NCBI RefSeq assembly: GCF_013284055.1
Contig: NZ_CP054143.1
Span: forward strand, 248,001 to 312,000
Source of the DNA: Deefgea piscis
Lineage (GTDB): Bacteria; Pseudomonadota; Gammaproteobacteria; Burkholderiales; Chitinibacteraceae
Direction: 5' to 3'
Length of the DNA stretch: 64,000 nucleotides
Shown: positions 1,347-8,505 of the stretch, one piece after another
Position numbering within the stretch: the first letter of the stretch is position 1
Layout of the letters: every line of letters begins with the position of its first letter
Translations under genes and position numbers: made by a program
The notes under the pieces: model-generated
The model's input: only the letters and a program-made list of their open reading frames with translations
Database searches by the model: none
Told to the model about the DNA's origin: nothing

Positions 1347-1634
1347 ATGTTTGGCATTTTGCTGTCGGCATTCAACGCCGTGATTGGTTGGGTTTTTCGC
1401 ACGCTGATTGTGAAGTTCGTCGTCGCGTTCGCGGTGTTTTATCTGGTGCAACTGATGGCTGAAAACCTGATTGATTTGCTTCCCGGCGTTGATGGGCTGA
1501 ATTCTGCATTTGGCGGTGTAGCGCCAACAGTGTGGTGGTATCTGGATGCGTTTGAAATTGCCGCTGGCATACAAATGGTGATCGCTGCCTATGTCACTCG
1601 CTTTCTAATTCGCCGTATTCCGGTCATCGGGTAA
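1347..1634 (+). CDS. DUF2523-type inovirus minor coat protein (pVI-like)
   Basis: A 95-residue, almost entirely hydrophobic protein with about three membrane segments (residues 1-20, 24-40, 65-88) and an Arg pair near the C terminus (FLIRRIP). It matches the DUF2523 family, which holds the gp6 position between the adsorption protein and Zot in many filamentous phages. In the virion it would cap the end opposite the site of assembly initiation together with pIII. It begins 8 bases after the upstream stop and ends 3 bases before the Zot start, so it is co-transcribed with both. Function is inferred from family and gene order. Confidence 0.8.
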   Translation: MFGILLSAFNAVIGWVFRTLIVKFVVAFAVFYLVQLMAENLIDLLPGVDGLNSAFGGVAPTVWWYLDAFEIAAGIQMVIAAYVTRFLIRRIPVIG

Positions 1635-1637
1635 ATC

Positions 1638-2717
1638 ATGCCAATTAATGCATACACTGGCCTGATGGGGTCGGGTAAATCTTATGAATGCGTGAGCAGC
1701 GTAATTCTTGAAGCAGTGCGCCGTGGTCGGCGCGTGATTACCAACGTGGCGGATATTGATAGCGATGCAATCCGCGCTTACTTACATGAAAAGCACGGCG
1801 ATGAACTGGAAAAGCTGGGCCATGTTGTTCACGTTTCTAATGACACGGTATCAAGCCCGGAATTTTTCTGCCACGGAACAGAGGCCGAAACCACGGTACA
1901 GCCGGGTGATTTAGTTTGTATTGACGAGGCTTGGCGTTTTTGGGGCTGCGATTGCAAGATCGCCCAAGAGCATAAGATATTTTTCCGCGAGCATCGTCAT
2001 TACGTCAGCCCGGTTACGAAGGTTTGCTGTGACCTCGTATTGATGGTTCAGGATATTACCGACTTGCACCGCATTTTGCGCGTGGTCGTTGAAATGACCT
2101 TTCGCACCGTCAAACTCAAATCTCTCGGTTTGAGCAAAGCCTACCGAGTCGAGGTCTATGAGGGTTACAAGCTCAACGCTAAAACTCGGGTGAACACGTT
2201 CCCCAAAAAATACGACAAAGCCATTTTTCCGCTGTATTCGTCATACACCGGAGGAACAGGGAAAGAACATCAAATTGATGATCGCCAAAACCTGCTCAAA
2301 GATTGGCGTCTGTGGGCTTTGGTCATCGGCACGATCATTGTTTTCGCAGTTGGCTTTTACAACATGTGGAAATTCTTTCACCCGGAGCCTGTAACACCGG
2401 GGGCAGAAGAGTCAGCGAAGGCATTGCCTGCTGTGACTCAGCAAAATCAAAGCAGCGGCGGCAAGGCGCAAAGTCAGTCCGAAGGTATGTCACGCTGGCG
2501 CTTGACGGGATATTTGCAAAAGCCGGATGGCACTTTGCTGGTCAGCCTGCACGATGGGAAACATTTTCGGACGATCAAAGCGACCAGCTTTGCTATTGAT
2601 GGCCTAACTACATCGGGCTATGTCGATGGCGAAATGGTTGCCTTCTGGTCGGGTAGCGAACTTGAAACTACGCCATTTGGTGCGGCATTGCCGACTGTCA
2701 CGGAGTCCAAGCAATGA
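1638..2717 (+). CDS. zot: Zot-like inovirus assembly ATPase (pI homologue)
   Basis: Inner-membrane assembly ATPase of filamentous phage, family of Zot/pI. The N-terminal cytoplasmic domain has a Walker A loop (GLMGSGKS, residues 8-15) and a Walker B-like LVCIDEAWRFWG with the DE pair at 96-97. A single transmembrane segment follows at about 225-242 (LWALVIGTIIVFAVGF), leaving a C-terminal periplasmic tail of about 115 residues that would contact the secretin. At 359 residues it is normal length for the family. The gene overlaps the secretin start by 4 bases (ATGA), which suggests translational coupling. The name zonular occludens toxin is historical; nothing here indicates a toxin role. Confidence 0.92.
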   Translation: MPINAYTGLMGSGKSYECVSSVILEAVRRGRRVITNVADIDSDAIRAYLHEKHGDELEKLGHVVHVSNDTVSSPEFFCHGTEAETTVQPGDLVCIDEAWRFWGCDCKIAQEHKIFFREHRHYVSPVTKVCCDLVLMVQDITDLHRILRVVVEMTFRTVKLKSLGLSKAYRVEVYEGYKLNAKTRVNTFPKKYDKAIFPLYSSYTGGTGKEHQIDDRQNLLKDWRLWALVIGTIIVFAVGFYNMWKFFHPEPVTPGAEESAKALPAVTQQNQSSGGKAQSQSEGMSRWRLTGYLQKPDGTLLVSLHDGKHFRTIKATSFAIDGLTTSGYVDGEMVAFWSGSELETTPFGAALPTVTESKQ

Positions 2718-3961
2718 AACGCCTTGCATTGATTTTGCTGTTTTTCACATCGATGGTGTTGGCTGCAGATCAGCCGCCTAAGTCACGGCTGTTCTTTGAT
2801 GCGTTGCCAGTCCTTGAGTTGGTCAAGCTGTATTACACCGAAATTGAACACAAGAATTTCGTCATTGATCCCAAAGCGCAGCAAATTGCCGACAAAGTGA
2901 CGGTGTCGTTTGATGCGAAAGAGCCGAAGCAATACCGAGCCTTGTTCCTCAGTGTGTTGGCCATGTCTGGCCTTGAAGTCGAAACTCAGAATGGCATGGA
3001 TTATTTGCGCTTGAGCACTAAAGCGGCCACGCCTGTTGAACCGAATGAAGTCTTTGTGTATCGCCCAAAATTCCGCGACATCACTTATTTTTCTGACTTG
3101 TTATCCAGCCTTTTTCAGAAAGGTCGATTTACCTTTCAGCGAGCAGTGCAAGCATCAACCACGGCCAGCCCGGGTCAAGCGCCAATTCAGGACGGTGGCA
3201 ATTCGGCGTACTCGCAAATCAATAAGCATCACGATCTATTAATCTTTAGCGGCCCTGCACAAGAAGTCAGCCAATTGCGCGGCCTAATTCAGCAAATCGA
3301 TTTACCAGAAGCACAGGTTCAAATTTCAGCGGTGGTTTATGAGTTCTCGACGACTGATACAGATTCGTGGGGCGTCGGCGCATTGCTCAAGTTGTTTGAT
3401 GGCAAGCTAAAAGTATCGCTGGGTATGTCGCCTGCAGCGGCCACAGGCAATGTCATGACACTGGCAACGGGCAGCTTGGATTTAGTGGCATCACTGGTAT
3501 CAACCGATACCCGCTTCAAAGTCATTTCGCGGCCACATGTGCGTGTGAAGGATGCGGCAGCGGCACGCTTTATGTCCGGTGATGATGTGCCAGTATTAGG
3601 CGCTGCCGTGTTAGATAAGAACGGCAACCCCATTCAATCTGTTGAATACAAATCATCAGGGGTCATTCTCGATGTTGCGCCGAATATCCGCGATGAAATT
3701 GTTGATCTGGCAATTACCCAGCAAATATCAAACTTTGCGGCTACCAAAACTGGCGTTAGTGCATCGCCCACGCTGATTAAGCGCGAAATCAAAACAAACC
3801 TCCTGGCCAAGCCCGGTGAAGTGTATGTGATCGGCGGCTTAACCAGCGCCAAATCCACCACCGAAAAATCACACCTGCCATTTTTTAGCCTGCCACTTGG
3901 CGAAGGCAAAGACCTGAACCAAACCGAGATTCTTGTGCTGCTGCAAGTTGACCGAGTTTGA
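2714..3961 (+). CDS. Phage secretin (pIV-like, type II/III secretion GspD family)
   Basis: Outer-membrane channel for virion extrusion. The 415-residue protein starts with a clear signal peptide (MKRLALILLFFTSMVLA, cleavage near residue 18). An N0/N1-like region follows, then the C-terminal secretin domain with recognisable family sequences (ISRPHVRVKDAAAARFMSGDDVPV, given here only by its ends at about residues 270-293; SSGVILDVAPNI; GEVYVIGGLTS). It is short compared with general type II secretins, as expected for phage pIV proteins. Many inoviruses borrow a host secretin, so carrying one makes this phage more self-sufficient. The start overlaps the end of zot. Confidence 0.9.
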   Translation: MKRLALILLFFTSMVLAADQPPKSRLFFDALPVLELVKLYYTEIEHKNFVIDPKAQQIADKVTVSFDAKEPKQYRALFLSVLAMSGLEVETQNGMDYLRLSTKAATPVEPNEVFVYRPKFRDITYFSDLLSSLFQKGRFTFQRAVQASTTASPGQAPIQDGGNSAYSQINKHHDLLIFSGPAQEVSQLRGLIQQIDLPEAQVQISAVVYEFSTTDTDSWGVGALLKLFDGKLKVSLGMSPAAATGNVMTLATGSLDLVASLVSTDTRFKVISRPHVRVKDAAAARFMSGDDVPVLGAAVLDKNGNPIQSVEYKSSGVILDVAPNIRDEIVDLAITQQISNFAATKTGVSASPTLIKREIKTNLLAKPGEVYVIGGLTSAKSTTEKSHLPFFSLPLGEGKDLNQTEILVLLQVDRV

Positions 3962-3989
3962 AACCGACTATTTAGAGGAGAAATACACC

Positions 3990-4211
3990 ATGAAGAAAAT
4001 GACAATTTCGCAATTTCACCGCTGGTTTATGTTGGATGGATCGCTTGGCGGATTGTGTGGCGTGGCCCTGTATGTGATGGCTTGCCAGCTTTTAAGTGCT
4101 CCAATTTCATGGTCAGCAATATCTTGGTTTTTTGTCCTGTGTGGTGGCTTGTACCTGATTGCACAGCTTGTCATCGATGAATTGAATTTTCGCAATATTG
4201 ACTCGGAGTAA
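3990..4211 (+). CDS. Small inner-membrane protein of the phage module, unknown function
   Basis: A 73-residue protein. I chose the ATG at 3990 because a strong ribosome site (AGAGGAG) lies just upstream; a longer frame opens at 3933 but overlaps the secretin gene. Two hydrophobic segments are visible (about residues 17-33 and 39-62), with a basic N terminus (MKKMTISQFHRW) and an acidic tail. I do not recognise a family. Its place after the secretin, in the same direction and with tight spacing to the next gene, makes it part of the phage late operon. It could be an assembly accessory or immunity-type protein, but nothing in the sequence decides this. Confidence 0.65.
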   Translation: MKKMTISQFHRWFMLDGSLGGLCGVALYVMACQLLSAPISWSAISWFFVLCGGLYLIAQLVIDELNFRNIDSE

Positions 4212-4217
4212 TACGAA

Positions 4218-4445
4218 ATGGCTATGGATCATATCGAAGAATTTGACATTCCCTTTGGCTCTCCGCCAATGGATGCACTTGATGTACCGCCGTTTCGTGA
4301 CGGACGGCCAATGAAAAAGGTGGTACTAGTTTGCCCAGAGTGCGGTGAAAAAGGTATCTGGATCGAACCGCCAGATACCACGCTGAAATTTGGCGATGCG
4401 GCTTCTGAGTGCGATGAGTGTGGTTATGGACTGGATTACTTGTAA
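4218..4445 (+). CDS. Small zinc-ribbon protein of the phage module
   Basis: A 75-residue acidic protein whose C-terminal half carries two CxxC knuckles, CPEC (near residue 39) and CDEC (near residue 66), about 24 residues apart, typical of a zinc ribbon. The N-terminal 30 residues are Pro/Asp-rich and look disordered. It starts 6 bases after the preceding gene, so it is in the same transcript. Small zinc-ribbon proteins are common in phages but I cannot name a family or role; nucleic-acid binding or a regulatory adaptor role is possible. Confidence 0.65.
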   Translation: MAMDHIEEFDIPFGSPPMDALDVPPFRDGRPMKKVVLVCPECGEKGIWIEPPDTTLKFGDAASECDECGYGLDYL

Positions 4446-4457
4446 GATTAGGAAACA

Positions 4458-4691
4458 ATGATGGCAACAAATAAACTGATCAACCGCAAGCGGCTATTGG
4501 AAATCATCCCACTGTCTGAGCGCACGATTTTTAACATGGAACAGCGCGGGGAGTTCCCGCGCCGTATCGTACTCACCAGTCGCAATGTGGCATGGGATTT
4601 AGCTGAAATCGAAGGCTGGATTGCAGAGCGTAAATTATCGGGCGCTCACCCTCTGCGCCCCTGCTTTGTACCTATAGTTGTGGCCGCTTGA
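4458..4691 (+). CDS. AlpA-family DNA-binding regulator / excisionase-like
   Basis: A 77-residue protein with the typical AlpA/MerR-like winged-helix pattern: recognition helix region LSERTIFNMEQRGEFPRRI (residues about 17-35), then a wing and the closing motif WDLAEIEGWIAERK. AlpA-like proteins act as transcriptional activators of integrase genes or as recombination directionality factors in P4-type elements. The element's integrase is encoded on the other strand about 2.3 kb away, which fits a control or excision role. The start has an AGGAAAC ribosome site; a second ATG directly follows the first, so the exact start is uncertain by one codon. The last ten or so residues look like a non-conserved tail. 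Confidence 0.85.
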   Translation: MMATNKLINRKRLLEIIPLSERTIFNMEQRGEFPRRIVLTSRNVAWDLAEIEGWIAERKLSGAHPLRPCFVPIVVAA

Positions 4692-4732
4692 TCAACACTT
4701 CATCAAAAATCAACATACGAATTGTTATTAAC

Positions 4733-6775
4733 TCATTGTGGAGTAGTAACTAAATTATCCCGCGAGGCTTCTAGGTCAAGCATAAATGCATATTCTTGGT
4801 AGAAGTCTCGTAGCGGCGTGAATACCCTTCTGTTACGCTGAAGTTCCTTAGCAAAATCCTCCGCATTATTTGATCGCTCCAACAAAAGCATTAAATGAAA
4901 AACTGAGAGGCTCCATGAATTTGAAAAAGGAAATGGCTTAGTGAAATCCATCTCCCCAGCACGAACAGCTGCCGCTTTAAACCGATCAAAATAATTATGC
5001 AATTGAGCAAGCTCGTTCTGTCTTGAAACATCTTTCGTTTCAAAAGTCACGCCACACCCCGTACGCAATAAATGCTGAAGATAAGGGCGATCATGCAAGC
5101 TATGTAGGTCACCTCGAGTAATTGAAATTTTAAAGACTTCTCGATCCAACTTATTAATTACATGCTGTACTTTTCCGCACCTTAAAGTTAATGATCCATA
5201 TTCAGTTAAAAATGCATGATGTCTCATCGCTTGAGCCTGTGGACGTACGATAGCCTGCCCTAAATCAGCAAGAGCTGTTATATCATCCCCCGATCTAGCT
5301 TTACGGGTTAACATTTTCGACTTTAACTCAAAGAAAATAATTACGTCCTTAGTTTCCAGTACAGCGTCACACTCTCCATCTTCCCCATCGATCTCATACT
5401 GTCCATAAAAAATTTCGATTCCTTTTTTGGTAAAAATGTCACGAACGAACTCTTCAAACAAAGGACCAACGACTTCATCGTCAAACATTTTTGTTGGCCA
5501 TTGTTTACGACACCAATCTAAGGATGCATTAATCACTGCACGTGCTGCGATAGGCCCCGGTTGCAAAAATAGCTTGTCCTGCGCAACTAACAATGGTCGA
5601 AAAGCGGCGTCAATATTAGTATCACGAGGAGGAAAACTAAGTTTCTGATTTGCTCCATGCTCATGAGCAAAAACTTCGCGCAAAAAAGACCTAGCTGAAT
5701 TAACATCAAGACCAGTAGCAAAAGCCAGCCTCATTGGATCAAGAATTGACTCAATTCCAATAAAATCATGAAAAACTCTATGTTTAATAATTTGCAGCAG
5801 CAATTTAGCAAGCGCAAGTACTTGCACTGCAGTCCGTCCAGTTTTCTTATTATTTAGCTGTGCAAGTTTCGGATGTTTTAGTAACCAGAAAATATAAGCT
5901 TCTGCATCTATAGGTTTCGCTTGAGTTAAAGTAAAAGCAGCATCATAAAGAGCAGATTTTTTCGTCAAATCTGGCAAATCTTGGATTCTCGCAAATTGTA
6001 ATTCTAATAATGAGATGCCAATATCTTCAAGAGTAAGTGCACAAGTAGCAAGTTCAATTAATAGATCAAGTTCATCTATGCCTACCGAAGGCGCTGGCTC
6101 ACAGGAAAAATAGCGTAGCCCAAGGTGATATAAATAAGCTAAAGGCATCTCTGGCTTGGCATTCAGCTCTACTGTTTTCCCAGTTCGCCCAACATGATAT
6201 CTTCCTGTAACCCCACTATATGTTTTACCAATACAGTCAACAATACTAAACGCTAAACTTCTACCCAATTCCTTTGCTAACCTAGAAACCTCAGACTTAA
6301 TGCGATTTCTATCAGAATCTGGAATAACAATTTCTCCAGACTGCGGCAATTCAATGCGATACCCGAGTTCACGCAGCCTCCTGATGGCATAAGAAAATTG
6401 CGAAAGACGGGAGTTAGAGCTCCATCGTTGATCGAGAGGATCGTCATAATCAAAAACTTTGGCATATTTAAGCCCAAGCTCCACCACGCGCTCCCAATCA
6501 ATTTGATTAGAAGGTGAACATCCTTCATCTAAACGTACTGCCTTAAGTGCCCTGATAACATCGGCGTATAGTTGCACTGGTTCAGCATCACACAGCCATC
6601 GCAATGCAAAATCAGTTTCAAGCTGTCTAACGATTAATAATGCTTCATACCTCTGGGTGAATGGGATGCAATTCAAAATTTGTTGTTTTAGTTCAGCCTC
6701 TGAAAAATCCACCTTCGCACTAGATAATCTATCAATTTTTGCATCAACGAGAGACTTAAAATCTGAAATATTCAT
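4733..6775 (-). CDS. PD-(D/E)XK nuclease-like protein, phage/island cargo, candidate defence gene
   Basis: A 680-residue protein I cannot place in a named family. Residues 430-545 look like a PD-(D/E)XK nuclease core: a helix with acidic residues (GPLFEEFVRDIF, Glu441/442), then a strand with Asp470 (GECDAVLE) and the E-x-K signature FFELKSK (Glu483, Lys485). This is the NERD/restriction-endonuclease-like arrangement. The roughly 420 residues before it are mostly helical, with no obvious ATPase or helicase motif. The gene is distinctly AT-rich (about 40 percent GC in the stretch I counted) compared with the flanking phage and core genes. It lies on the opposite strand from the phage operon, between the AlpA gene and the integrase, the usual position for accessory cargo. 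A defence role is inference from fold and position. It could instead be a repair or recombination nuclease. Confidence 0.6.
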   Translation of the reverse strand: MNISDFKSLVDAKIDRLSSAKVDFSEAELKQQILNCIPFTQRYEALLIVRQLETDFALRWLCDAEPVQLYADVIRALKAVRLDEGCSPSNQIDWERVVELGLKYAKVFDYDDPLDQRWSSNSRLSQFSYAIRRLRELGYRIELPQSGEIVIPDSDRNRIKSEVSRLAKELGRSLAFSIVDCIGKTYSGVTGRYHVGRTGKTVELNAKPEMPLAYLYHLGLRYFSCEPAPSVGIDELDLLIELATCALTLEDIGISLLELQFARIQDLPDLTKKSALYDAAFTLTQAKPIDAEAYIFWLLKHPKLAQLNNKKTGRTAVQVLALAKLLLQIIKHRVFHDFIGIESILDPMRLAFATGLDVNSARSFLREVFAHEHGANQKLSFPPRDTNIDAAFRPLLVAQDKLFLQPGPIAARAVINASLDWCRKQWPTKMFDDEVVGPLFEEFVRDIFTKKGIEIFYGQYEIDGEDGECDAVLETKDVIIFFELKSKMLTRKARSGDDITALADLGQAIVRPQAQAMRHHAFLTEYGSLTLRCGKVQHVINKLDREVFKISITRGDLHSLHDRPYLQHLLRTGCGVTFETKDVSRQNELAQLHNYFDRFKAAAVRAGEMDFTKPFPFSNSWSLSVFHLMLLLERSNNAEDFAKELQRNRRVFTPLRDFYQEYAFMLDLEASRDNLVTTPQ

Positions 6776-6970: not shown

Positions 6971-8185
6971 TTATGCAAATCGATGAGTAACAACGTATTC
7001 ATCAATAATGTTTGCCCAATCTTGCAACATGGCCGTACGCTGTTCCCGGTACTCGGCCTTGTTGTAAACCGCTCTCACGCCCCGCTGTTCATGCGCTAGG
7101 CATTTTTCGATCCAGTCAGTGTTATACCCCGCTTCATGTAGCAGGGTACTCGCGGTTCTCCGCAGATCGTGCGGGCCAAATTTGGCAAGCGGCTTTCCTT
7201 CCTTCTGTGCCAGTTTGTACGTCAGCGACAGTACCTGATTCAGCGTTGCGCTGCTCATTGGCGTATCTGAGTCATACCGCGATGGCAAAATATAATCAGA
7301 GCCTCCCGCGAAAGTTTTCAGGGCAATGAAAATATCCAGTGCTTGCTTGGACAGGAAAACCAGATGCGGATTGCGCCGTTTCATTCGCGCTTTGGGAATC
7401 GTCCAAAGCGCTTCACTAAAATTAATCTCGCTCCACGTTGCATTAGTCAGTTCGCTTTTCCTCACCATTGTTAGCAACAGCAGCTTGGCCGCAGCTCTGA
7501 TCGATGGTGTCGTACCGATACGTTCGATGTATTGATACATCAAGCCGATTTCGTCGGGAGTTAATGCTCGGTCGCGTGGCTCAAACGTAGCAATAGCACT
7601 TGGCCGCACCAGATCAGCAGGATTTTCCACCTTCTGACCTCGCTCAATTGCCCACCGAAAAACCTGCATAACGACCTCACGCGCATGTACCGCCGTAGCT
7701 GGCGCGCCACGCTCAACAATGGAGTCAGTCAGCGCCCGCAAATCCTCGTGGGTGATTTCTGCCAACTTCTGATTGCCGAACTTAGGCTTTAGCTCACGCT
7801 CATACACTGCTCGGCGCATATCGCGGGTGGAGTCCGCCATCTGGTAGCCACGCAGCCATTTTTCCGCCCATGCACCGAATGTCTCAGCATCTTTGACTCG
7901 GGCTTTGCTTCGCGCTTTTTCTTTGGCTGGCGACTTACCTGCTGCAACTAGCTTTTTCGCCTCGCCCAACTGCTCTCGGGCTTCTGCCAATGTGATCCCC
8001 CCGACGCCATAGCGTCCGAAAGTGATGGTTTCCTGTCGGCCATTGACTGAATAGTTGTAACGGAACGAGATCGATCCGGCTGGTGTGACCGCCACATAAA
8101 GACCGTCGCGGTCGTTGACCTTGTAGATTTTGTCTTGTGGCTTGAGGCTGCGAATCTTGGTATCAGTGAGCATGGTTTCATTCAA
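6971..8185 (-). CDS. int: Tyrosine recombinase integrase, DUF4102 (P4-like) family
   Basis: Site-specific integrase that would insert and excise the element. Residues 1-90 form the DUF4102 arm-binding domain (LTDTKIRSLKPQDKIYKVND, DGLYVAV, GRYGVGGITLAEAR). Residues about 100-185 are the core-binding SAM-like domain. The catalytic domain holds Arg242 (TMVRKSEL), His339-x-x-Arg342 (PHDLRRTAST), His365 (LAHEQRG) and the nucleophile Tyr374 (VRAVYNKAEY), so all key residues are present. At 404 residues it is normal length. It is oriented away from guaA, just downstream of that gene, as in known guaA-associated islands. An internal ATG at 8173 (MLTDTK) is an alternative start that matches family N termini slightly better. 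Confidence 0.95.
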   Translation of the reverse strand: MNETMLTDTKIRSLKPQDKIYKVNDRDGLYVAVTPAGSISFRYNYSVNGRQETITFGRYGVGGITLAEAREQLGEAKKLVAAGKSPAKEKARSKARVKDAETFGAWAEKWLRGYQMADSTRDMRRAVYERELKPKFGNQKLAEITHEDLRALTDSIVERGAPATAVHAREVVMQVFRWAIERGQKVENPADLVRPSAIATFEPRDRALTPDEIGLMYQYIERIGTTPSIRAAAKLLLLTMVRKSELTNATWSEINFSEALWTIPKARMKRRNPHLVFLSKQALDIFIALKTFAGGSDYILPSRYDSDTPMSSATLNQVLSLTYKLAQKEGKPLAKFGPHDLRRTASTLLHEAGYNTDWIEKCLAHEQRGVRAVYNKAEYREQRTAMLQDWANIIDEYVVTHRFA

Positions 8186-8480: not shown

Positions 8481-8505
8481 TCATTCCCACTCAATCGTTG
8501 CTGGT
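8481..8505. other. Predicted attachment-site region at the 3' end of guaA
   Basis: The last codons of guaA (encoding ATIEWE and stop) are a well-known integration target for genomic islands with DUF4102 integrases. The integrase here starts about 300 bases downstream in the same orientation, so the right junction should lie in or just after these bases. The left junction is outside the window, so the direct repeat cannot be checked here and the crossover could also lie nearer the integrase. Confidence 0.4.

What the first reader, a model, noticed from the sequence alone, without database searches (positions are those of the whole stretch)
4733..6775. AT-rich PD-(D/E)XK nuclease-like cargo gene inside a filamentous prophage
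A 680-residue protein with E441/E442, D470 and E483-x-K485 in a nuclease-like arrangement, no recognised family, opposite strand to the phage operon, much lower GC, and sitting between the AlpA gene and the integrase. Known anti-phage genes often occupy this slot in prophages and P4-like satellites. This is the best candidate in the window for an undescribed defence or exclusion function. The nuclease core is read from sequence; the defence role is inference. Its ~420-residue N-terminal region has no visible ATPase motif, so it could be a single-gene system.
Basis: partly seen in the sequence, partly recalled or inferred. Interest (0 to 1): 0.7.

Follow-up and report, generated by a model that had tools for sequence, protein, structure and literature searches.

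The report
Solo nuclease cargo in filamentous prophage
A gene for a large DNA-cutting-type enzyme of an undescribed family has been dropped into a filamentous phage sitting in a bacterial chromosome; distant relatives often lie beside anti-phage genes on plasmids, so it is probably a one-gene immune system, but this has not been tested.

Summary
The ORF at 4733-6775 (-), 680 aa, is real. The PD-(D/E)XK reading holds: in 12 members E441 (11/12), D470, E483, K485 and Q515 (12/12) are conserved, E442 is not; the domain matches UPF0102/YraN by profile-profile comparison (97.6%; N-terminal control 0.3%). No library gives a confident match. Structure models were too poor to use. The gene is acquired cargo: in two filamentous prophages with 92-96% identical integrases AlpA and integrase almost touch or overlap, while here about 2.3 kb sits inside the integrase 3' end, flanked by a 12-nt imperfect direct repeat and a left-over integrase tail. 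The prophage lies in a ~20 kb island at guaA. Among 13 loci compared no other gene is common to all, so it acts as a one-gene unit. Of 13 relatives, 7 (of 9 whose neighbours were scanned) have a catalogued or candidate defence gene within 8 kb (SIR2-pAgo, Dsr1, Bil, Hma, GajA, others). Best reading: a stand-alone defence nuclease, distantly akin to GapS1, not Shedu. The defence function is inferred, not shown.

The parts
4733..6775 (-). PD-(D/E)XK nuclease-family protein, 680 aa (P0001)
   Evidence: 12-member alignment A8
5096..5503 (-). nuclease region, residues 425-560; E441 (5453-5455), D470 (5366-5368), E483 (5327-5329), K485 (5321-5323), Q515 (5231-5233)
   Evidence: conservation; hhalign to UPF0102/YraN; PDB profile hits
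5519..6775 (-). N-terminal region, residues 1-419, no recognised domain; probable sensing or binding part (inferred)
   Evidence: no family match; only chance-level PDB profile hits
4699..4710 (.). left copy of a 12-nt imperfect direct repeat flanking the insert (TTCATCAAAAAT)
6998..7009 (.). right copy of the repeat (TTCATCAATAAT), inside the integrase 3' end
4672..4710 (-). left-over integrase tail (IFDEVLIKRPQL, stop), resembling the end of the G054 integrase (MIDEWTIKRPQL)
6971..8185 (-). tyrosine integrase next to guaA; its last 8 residues differ from the relatives, by inference through the insertion
   Evidence: Pfam Phage_integrase
4458..4691 (+). AlpA-like small DNA-binding protein at the end of the phage operon (name from reading, no family search made)
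   Evidence: relatives near the integrase in G054, G782, G767
1638..2717 (+). Zot-like assembly protein of the filamentous prophage (name from reading)
   Evidence: relatives in 6 of 42 other genomes of the family
2714..3961 (+). secretin-like protein of the filamentous prophage (name from reading)
8483..8496 (.). right attachment repeat at the 3' end of guaA; its copy lies outside the window at G000:C1:236241

Best explanation
The gene encodes a one-protein anti-mobile-element (anti-phage or anti-plasmid) nuclease. Shown: a PD-(D/E)XK active-site signature (E441, D470, E483-x-K485, Q515) conserved in a divergent family; insertion as a single gene into the integrase/AlpA junction of a filamentous prophage; no partner gene conserved across the family's loci. 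Inferred: the ~420-residue N-terminal region, perhaps with the ~120 residues after the core, recognises a feature of an invading genome or of its replication, which releases the nuclease to cut nucleic acid, most likely DNA. The prophage carries it to protect its host, and so itself, from competitors. What is sensed and what exactly is cut is unknown; my guess is DNA of an incoming or replicating element.
For: Catalytic residues among the most conserved of 680. hhalign to UPF0102/YraN 97.6% against 0.3% for the N-terminal control. The six PDB profile hits of the nuclease region at E up to 10 are UPF0102 (E 0.012), ST1444, a DUF1887 protein and three Hjc chains (E 0.16-1.2); only the first is near significance, but all are proteins I recall as PD-(D/E)XK nucleases. 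Single members of 7 touch Pfam DpnII (E 0.00027) and NERD (0.013) and PADLOC Csx1 (0.00064). Distant match to an NCBIfam antiphage_GapS1 protein (hhalign 81.9%, E 1e-5 over residues 388-526). Neighbours of relatives: SIR2 and pAgo models next to the G1086 copy, Dsr1 next to the R. jaguaris copy, HmaC next to the Bradyrhizobium copy; BilC/BilD, AbiEii, a caspase-like protein, PDC-M30B; GajA. Own island: candidate PDC-S24 (Fic) and C3a187 (NERD-UvrD), 13-15 kb away. No gene other than the nuclease is common to the 13 loci compared. PADLOC families matched: 163 from 70 neighbour proteins, 43 from 97 control proteins.
Against: No functional test. Some loci have no defence neighbour that I saw: G1296 (between ntr-like core genes), G495 (in a polysaccharide cluster), Phaeobacter (annotation). 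Large plasmids carry defence genes anyway: one control region holds Hachiman HamA. The by-locus contrast is small and post hoc (6 of 8 against 1 of 8, p 0.02; against 2 of 8, p 0.066). One unknown gene of the own island has a relative near the Alteromonas copy, so a loose association is not excluded. No usable structure model. No relatives found in 50,697 phage records with two queries or in four scans of viral contigs. The family is rare: one further long relative each among 368, 397 and 384 other genomes sampled, none among 398 others of the order with the single protein; only a few candidates per genome were scored, so these are lower bounds.
Confidence: 0.62

Rival explanations
1. It is a recombination or repair nuclease serving the mobile element itself (Hjc- or RecB-like: branch cutting, end processing), not an immune protein.
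For: Chance-level profile hits include Hjc Holliday-junction resolvases. Relatives sit on large, often conjugative plasmids, and one is near a Y-family polymerase gene.
Against: Related prophages lack it: closed junction in G054 and G782, and no copy in any of the eight related regions fetched. No replication or recombination gene is common to the 13 loci. Sporadic distribution. A ~420-residue extra region is large for a resolvase.
Confidence: 0.15
2. It is an abortive-infection effector that damages host nucleic acid (DNA or RNA) once infection is sensed, so the infected cell dies.
For: Neighbours of relatives include proteins of kinds that I recall as abortive effectors (SIR2-pAgo, Dsr1, caspase-like). 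The profile also touches a DUF1887 nuclease (Can2/Card1 type, recalled) at E 0.55.
Against: Sequence cannot separate direct restriction from suicide; no antitoxin-like gene is common to the loci.
Confidence: 0.15
3. It is mainly a selfish or homing nuclease that drives its own spread as a single-gene element; any defence is incidental.
For: Lone insertion inside the integrase gene end with a 12-nt imperfect direct repeat; lone copy between ntr-like core genes in G1296.
Against: The repeat could be a short-homology footprint; only one insertion was resolved to the base; relatives sit in unrelated sites; I did not examine the flanks of the other copies for a shared target.
Confidence: 0.06

Closest known systems
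GapS1 (NCBIfam NF047931, antiphage_GapS1)
   Same: One protein of about 500 aa with a long N-terminal region followed by a PD-(D/E)XK-like core; the profile alignment spans 137 columns including ~45 residues before the core.
   Different: Of 12 members one hits the NCBIfam model, at E 0.0081; hhalign probability 81.9%, made with a single GapS1 sequence, and no alignment is reported outside that stretch. No paper on GapS1 came up in the library; its anti-phage activity is recalled and from the family name.
Shedu (SduA)
   Same: Works alike in outline: one gene, PD-(D/E)XK nuclease governed by an N-terminal clamp (PMC12904381, passages seen).
   Different: Pfam SduA_C (PF14082) is not among the families hit by the 7 members at E up to 1, nor PADLOC SduA; hhalign to a thin profile of two SduA proteins 0.1-0.8%.
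UPF0102 / YraN family
   Same: Nuclease core with E, D and E-x-K/R in register.
   Different: The 14 YraN proteins used are 111-177 aa with E-x-R; this is 680 aa with long extra regions, rare and mobile.
G297 SEC-C protein (L052:7543-9813) and G625 protein (L012:775-2205)
   Same: Uncharacterised large proteins sharing the core and, before it, about 130 (G297) or 45 (G625) residues (hhalign 96.3%; 95.6%).
   Different: Different ends (SEC-C-like motif in the first, by reading); not members of the full-length family.

Membership tests
PD-(D/E)XK nuclease superfamily | E in the first helix, D, then E/D-x-K on neighbouring strands, conserved in the family | tested here: met
   E441 11/12; D470, E483, K485, Q515 12/12; profile match to UPF0102
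PD-(D/E)XK nuclease superfamily | alpha-beta-beta-beta-alpha-beta core fold | tested here: inconclusive
   Single-sequence models show helix 436-450, strands 454-487, helix 497-516, but mean pLDDT is only 34.9 and 40.1
Shedu (SduA) | SduA_C domain (PF14082) | tested here: not met
   the profile comparison used two SduA proteins only
GapS1 | full-length match above the NCBIfam cut-off (320 bits) | tested here: not met
   one of 12 members, at E 0.0081; hhalign core match 81.9%
UPF0102/YraN | match above curated cut-off (109 bits) | tested here: not met
   13.7 bits for the window protein
Stand-alone anti-phage nuclease (functional kind) | no conserved partner gene | tested here: met
   13 loci including the window's, all-against-all, ATG ORFs of 80 aa or more, E up to 1e-6; exceptions shared by two loci only
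Stand-alone anti-phage nuclease (functional kind) | blocks phage or plasmid, dependent on the active site | not testable with these tools
   needs an experiment

The most novel reading that the evidence does not exclude
A previously undescribed family of one-gene immune nucleases that spreads as a lone, self-inserting gene: its PD-(D/E)XK domain both cuts invading DNA and opens target junctions, so that the gene hops into phage, plasmid and core-gene junctions without a transposase. The 12-nt flanking repeat here and the lone copy between ntr-like genes in G1296 would be its footprints.
Probability: 0.05. Interest if true: 0.85.

Novelty: new member of a known kind. Interest (0 to 1): 0.45.

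Why it matters
It gives a concrete, testable candidate: a protein family without a confident match in the Pfam, PHROGs, NCBIfam or PADLOC copies searched, with named catalytic residues, a natural empty-site comparison, and relatives recurring near anti-phage genes, mostly on plasmids. It also shows a filamentous phage, whose genome is small, carrying a 2 kb gene of this kind. If confirmed it adds one more single-protein nuclease to the Shedu/GapS1 kind, with an unrecognised N-terminal region whose trigger would be the interesting part.

Tried and rejected
Pfam, PHROGs, NCBIfam and PADLOC scans gave no confident name (PHROGs with the window protein only). Both genome-contig scans and four viral-contig scans confirmed no relative; these scans start from short peptide patterns, so they miss distant members. 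PDB searches with the N-terminal region gave only chance-level hits. Profile hits of 17-33 bits in many genomes are mostly 100-200 aa YraN-type frames and were not counted as relatives. I first took the Fic and NERD-UvrD genes as cargo of the same element; Fic or its remnants also occur near guaA in other congeners and in G788, so Fic at least may be an older resident of the hotspot. Shedu membership was rejected. The promoter and terminator scan found fewer sites than shuffles.

Rows dropped: from the neighbour set I left out the family members themselves, cut CDSs, CDSs under ~100 aa, three frameshifted transposases and one type III effector gene; from the control set cut and short CDSs and three frameshifted transposases. 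The sets cover 8 plasmid loci; Acinetobacter, R. phaseoli S3, G1086, G495 and G1296 had no matched control, and the neighbours of Acinetobacter, S3, G495 and G1296 were not scanned with PADLOC. The alignment scans show only 25 families each (of 163 and 43), so not every match could be assigned to a locus: 6 of 8 (at least) and 1 or 2 of 8 combine with my own assignment, and a few control matches (PDC-S68, RecD- and DinG-type, mad3/mad8) were left as generic or unassigned.

Full report
Observation. The reading frame is there as described: 4733-6775 on the minus strand, 680 codons from ATG. Its GC is 0.402 and GC3 0.299, while guaA, dnaX, Zot, secretin and integrase have GC 0.49-0.52 and GC3 0.51-0.55. 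Other genes of the island are AT-rich too (Rep 0.418, two unknown genes 0.404 and 0.355). The gene is read against the phage operon and in the same direction as the integrase.

The protein. Pfam and PHROGs give nothing at E up to 5; NCBIfam and PADLOC give only weak hits, all but one over residues ~430-490. tblastn found relatives in 14 plasmid records, the best a 43% identical full-length protein on a Methylobacter plasmid; further queries added Phaeobacter, Acinetobacter and a second Rhizobium phaseoli lineage, and whole-genome searches added G495, G1086 and G1296. That makes 10 plasmid lineages and 3 genome loci beside the window. In the 12-member alignment (the broken Shewanella copy and the later-found G1296 left out; the annotated Phaeobacter protein is short at its N-terminus) 17 of 680 residues are identical in at least 11 of 12, among them E441, D470, E483, K485, K487, T490, G496 and Q515; E442 is not. 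The nuclease region aligns with 14 YraN/UPF0102 proteins at 97.6% probability with E, D and E-x-K/R in register, whereas the N-terminal region gives 0.3%. A PDB profile search with the nuclease region (E up to 10) returned six chains: UPF0102 at E 0.012, then ST1444, a DUF1887 protein and three Hjc chains at 0.16-1.2, all PD-(D/E)XK proteins as far as I recall. AlphaFold without relatives gave pLDDT 34.9 (whole) and 40.1 (domain), so the fold itself is not shown.

Setting. The integrase lies next to the 3' end of guaA. A 14-nt piece of that end (8483-8496) recurs at G000:C1:236241, about 20.2 kb away. A 14-nt match alone is modest: 13 of 1600 14-mers of guaA recur somewhere in the 100 kb examined. 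The 8-mer ATACCATG (either strand) occurs seven times in those 100 kb, four of them within about 300 bp of the two ends and three elsewhere. guaA 3' ends are a known integration site: GIsul2 inserts there at GAGTGGGA and also has an alpA gene (PMC9376610, passages seen). Congener G054 has a like repeat pair around its own prophage, the left copy with one mismatch. The segment holds a Fic protein (PADLOC candidate PDC-S24), a NERD-UvrD protein (PADLOC C3a187), two unknown AT-rich genes, a repressor-like gene, the filamentous phage genes, the nuclease gene and the integrase (phage gene names by reading).

Cargo insertion. Among 43 genomes of the family, five including the own one carry this integrase at E <= 1e-120. 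G054 has the same filamentous prophage (Zot 97%, integrase 96%) and G782 a related one (Zot 49%, integrase 92%); in both the AlpA and integrase matches end within a few bases of each other, and in G054 the integrase frame runs on into AlpA. G767 has AlpA (54%) and a 68% integrase about 470 bp apart; G788 has an interrupted integrase and no AlpA found. Four further fetched prophage regions with Zot relatives (G326, G774, G353, G785) showed neither this integrase nor AlpA, and the nuclease gene was found in none of the eight regions. In the window the nuclease gene fills the junction. The two insert edges carry TTCATCAAAAAT (4699-4710) and TTCATCAATAAT (6998-7009), and the left edge still encodes IFDEVLIKRPQL-stop, resembling the G054 integrase end MIDEWTIKRPQL; the window's integrase ends in a different tail. 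So the segment went into the 3' end of the integrase gene. No full-length copy of the nuclease gene occurs in the other 42 genomes of the family.

Neighbours of relatives. G1086: proteins matching PADLOC SIR2-pAgo models (E 3.9e-219 and 1.3e-211) directly downstream, which I read as a short-pAgo/SIR2 pair. R. jaguaris: a Dsr1-type protein ending about 100 bp upstream. Xanthomonas: BilC and BilD. Bradyrhizobium: HmaC. Methylobacter: GajA and the candidate PDC-M30B. Alteromonas: AbiEii. Shewanella: a caspase-like protein and an annotated TIR protein, with the relative itself split by an IS. That is 7 of 13 relatives, all within 8 kb. The window's own island adds two candidate genes 13-15 kb away. 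The rest: R. phaseoli R744 (a NucS-like protein, weak PDC-S11 match), R. phaseoli S3 and Acinetobacter (not scanned), Phaeobacter (none by annotation), G495 (polysaccharide genes; not scanned), G1296 (between genes that I read as ntrC and ntrY; not scanned). As a control I took regions of like size roughly opposite on the same eight plasmids (the one for R744 is longer than its test region): one has Hachiman HamA, one a SWI2/SNF2-type helicase. Seventy neighbour proteins matched 163 PADLOC families, 97 control proteins 43; many of these are redundant models of one protein type. By locus the contrast is 6 of 8 against 1 or 2 of 8 (p 0.02 or 0.066), post hoc, small and partly my own assignment.

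One gene. An all-against-all comparison of 398 ORFs in 13 loci, the window's included (G1296 was found later), shows only the nuclease gene in every locus; other shared genes are transposases or recombinases, a NucS-like gene in two Rhizobium loci, and one unknown gene shared by the window's island and the Alteromonas locus.

Kinship. A GapS1 protein from G440, fetched with the NCBIfam model, aligns over residues 388-526, that is the core and ~45 residues before it, at 81.9%; two unnamed large proteins align at 95.6 and 96.3%. Two SduA proteins align at 0.1-0.8%. It is therefore not Shedu by these tests, and is at most a distant cousin of GapS1. Shedu as described (N-terminal clamp, DNA-end binding, PD-(D/E)XK cutting; PMC12904381, passages seen) is a fair model for how it could work. 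Prophage cargo sites are a known source of defence genes (PMC9519451, passages seen).

Verdict. An ordinary kind of thing in an apparently undescribed family: most likely a stand-alone defence nuclease carried as prophage cargo. The nuclease signature, the insertion and the absence of a conserved partner are shown; the function is inferred. My paper searches (listings seen) turned up no description of the family, but they were few and the library is partial.

Noticed in passing
L077 (G054:C1:712300-728500), reverse-complemented 1570-5612: The related prophage in congener G054 carries different extra genes near its left end, including a 443-aa ATPase-like protein: another cargo region of this phage.
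   Followed up: partly
L053:8574-9374 and L004:13114-13941: An unknown 266-aa AT-rich gene of the same island has a 30% identical relative 1.3 kb from the nuclease relative on an Alteromonas plasmid.
   Followed up: no
L053:4477-6003: Fic gene matching PADLOC candidate PDC-S24; further copies or remnants lie near guaA in several congeners.
   Followed up: partly
L052:7543-9813: A 756-aa nuclease-like protein with a C-terminal SEC-C-like motif (by reading) in G297 shares the core.
   Followed up: partly
L006:4388-6244 and L057:1846-3540: NucS-like endonuclease genes near the relatives in two Rhizobium loci.
   Followed up: no
L104:8325-10391: In G1296 the relative sits alone between genes that read as ntrC and ntrY, a lone insertion in a core region.
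   Followed up: partly
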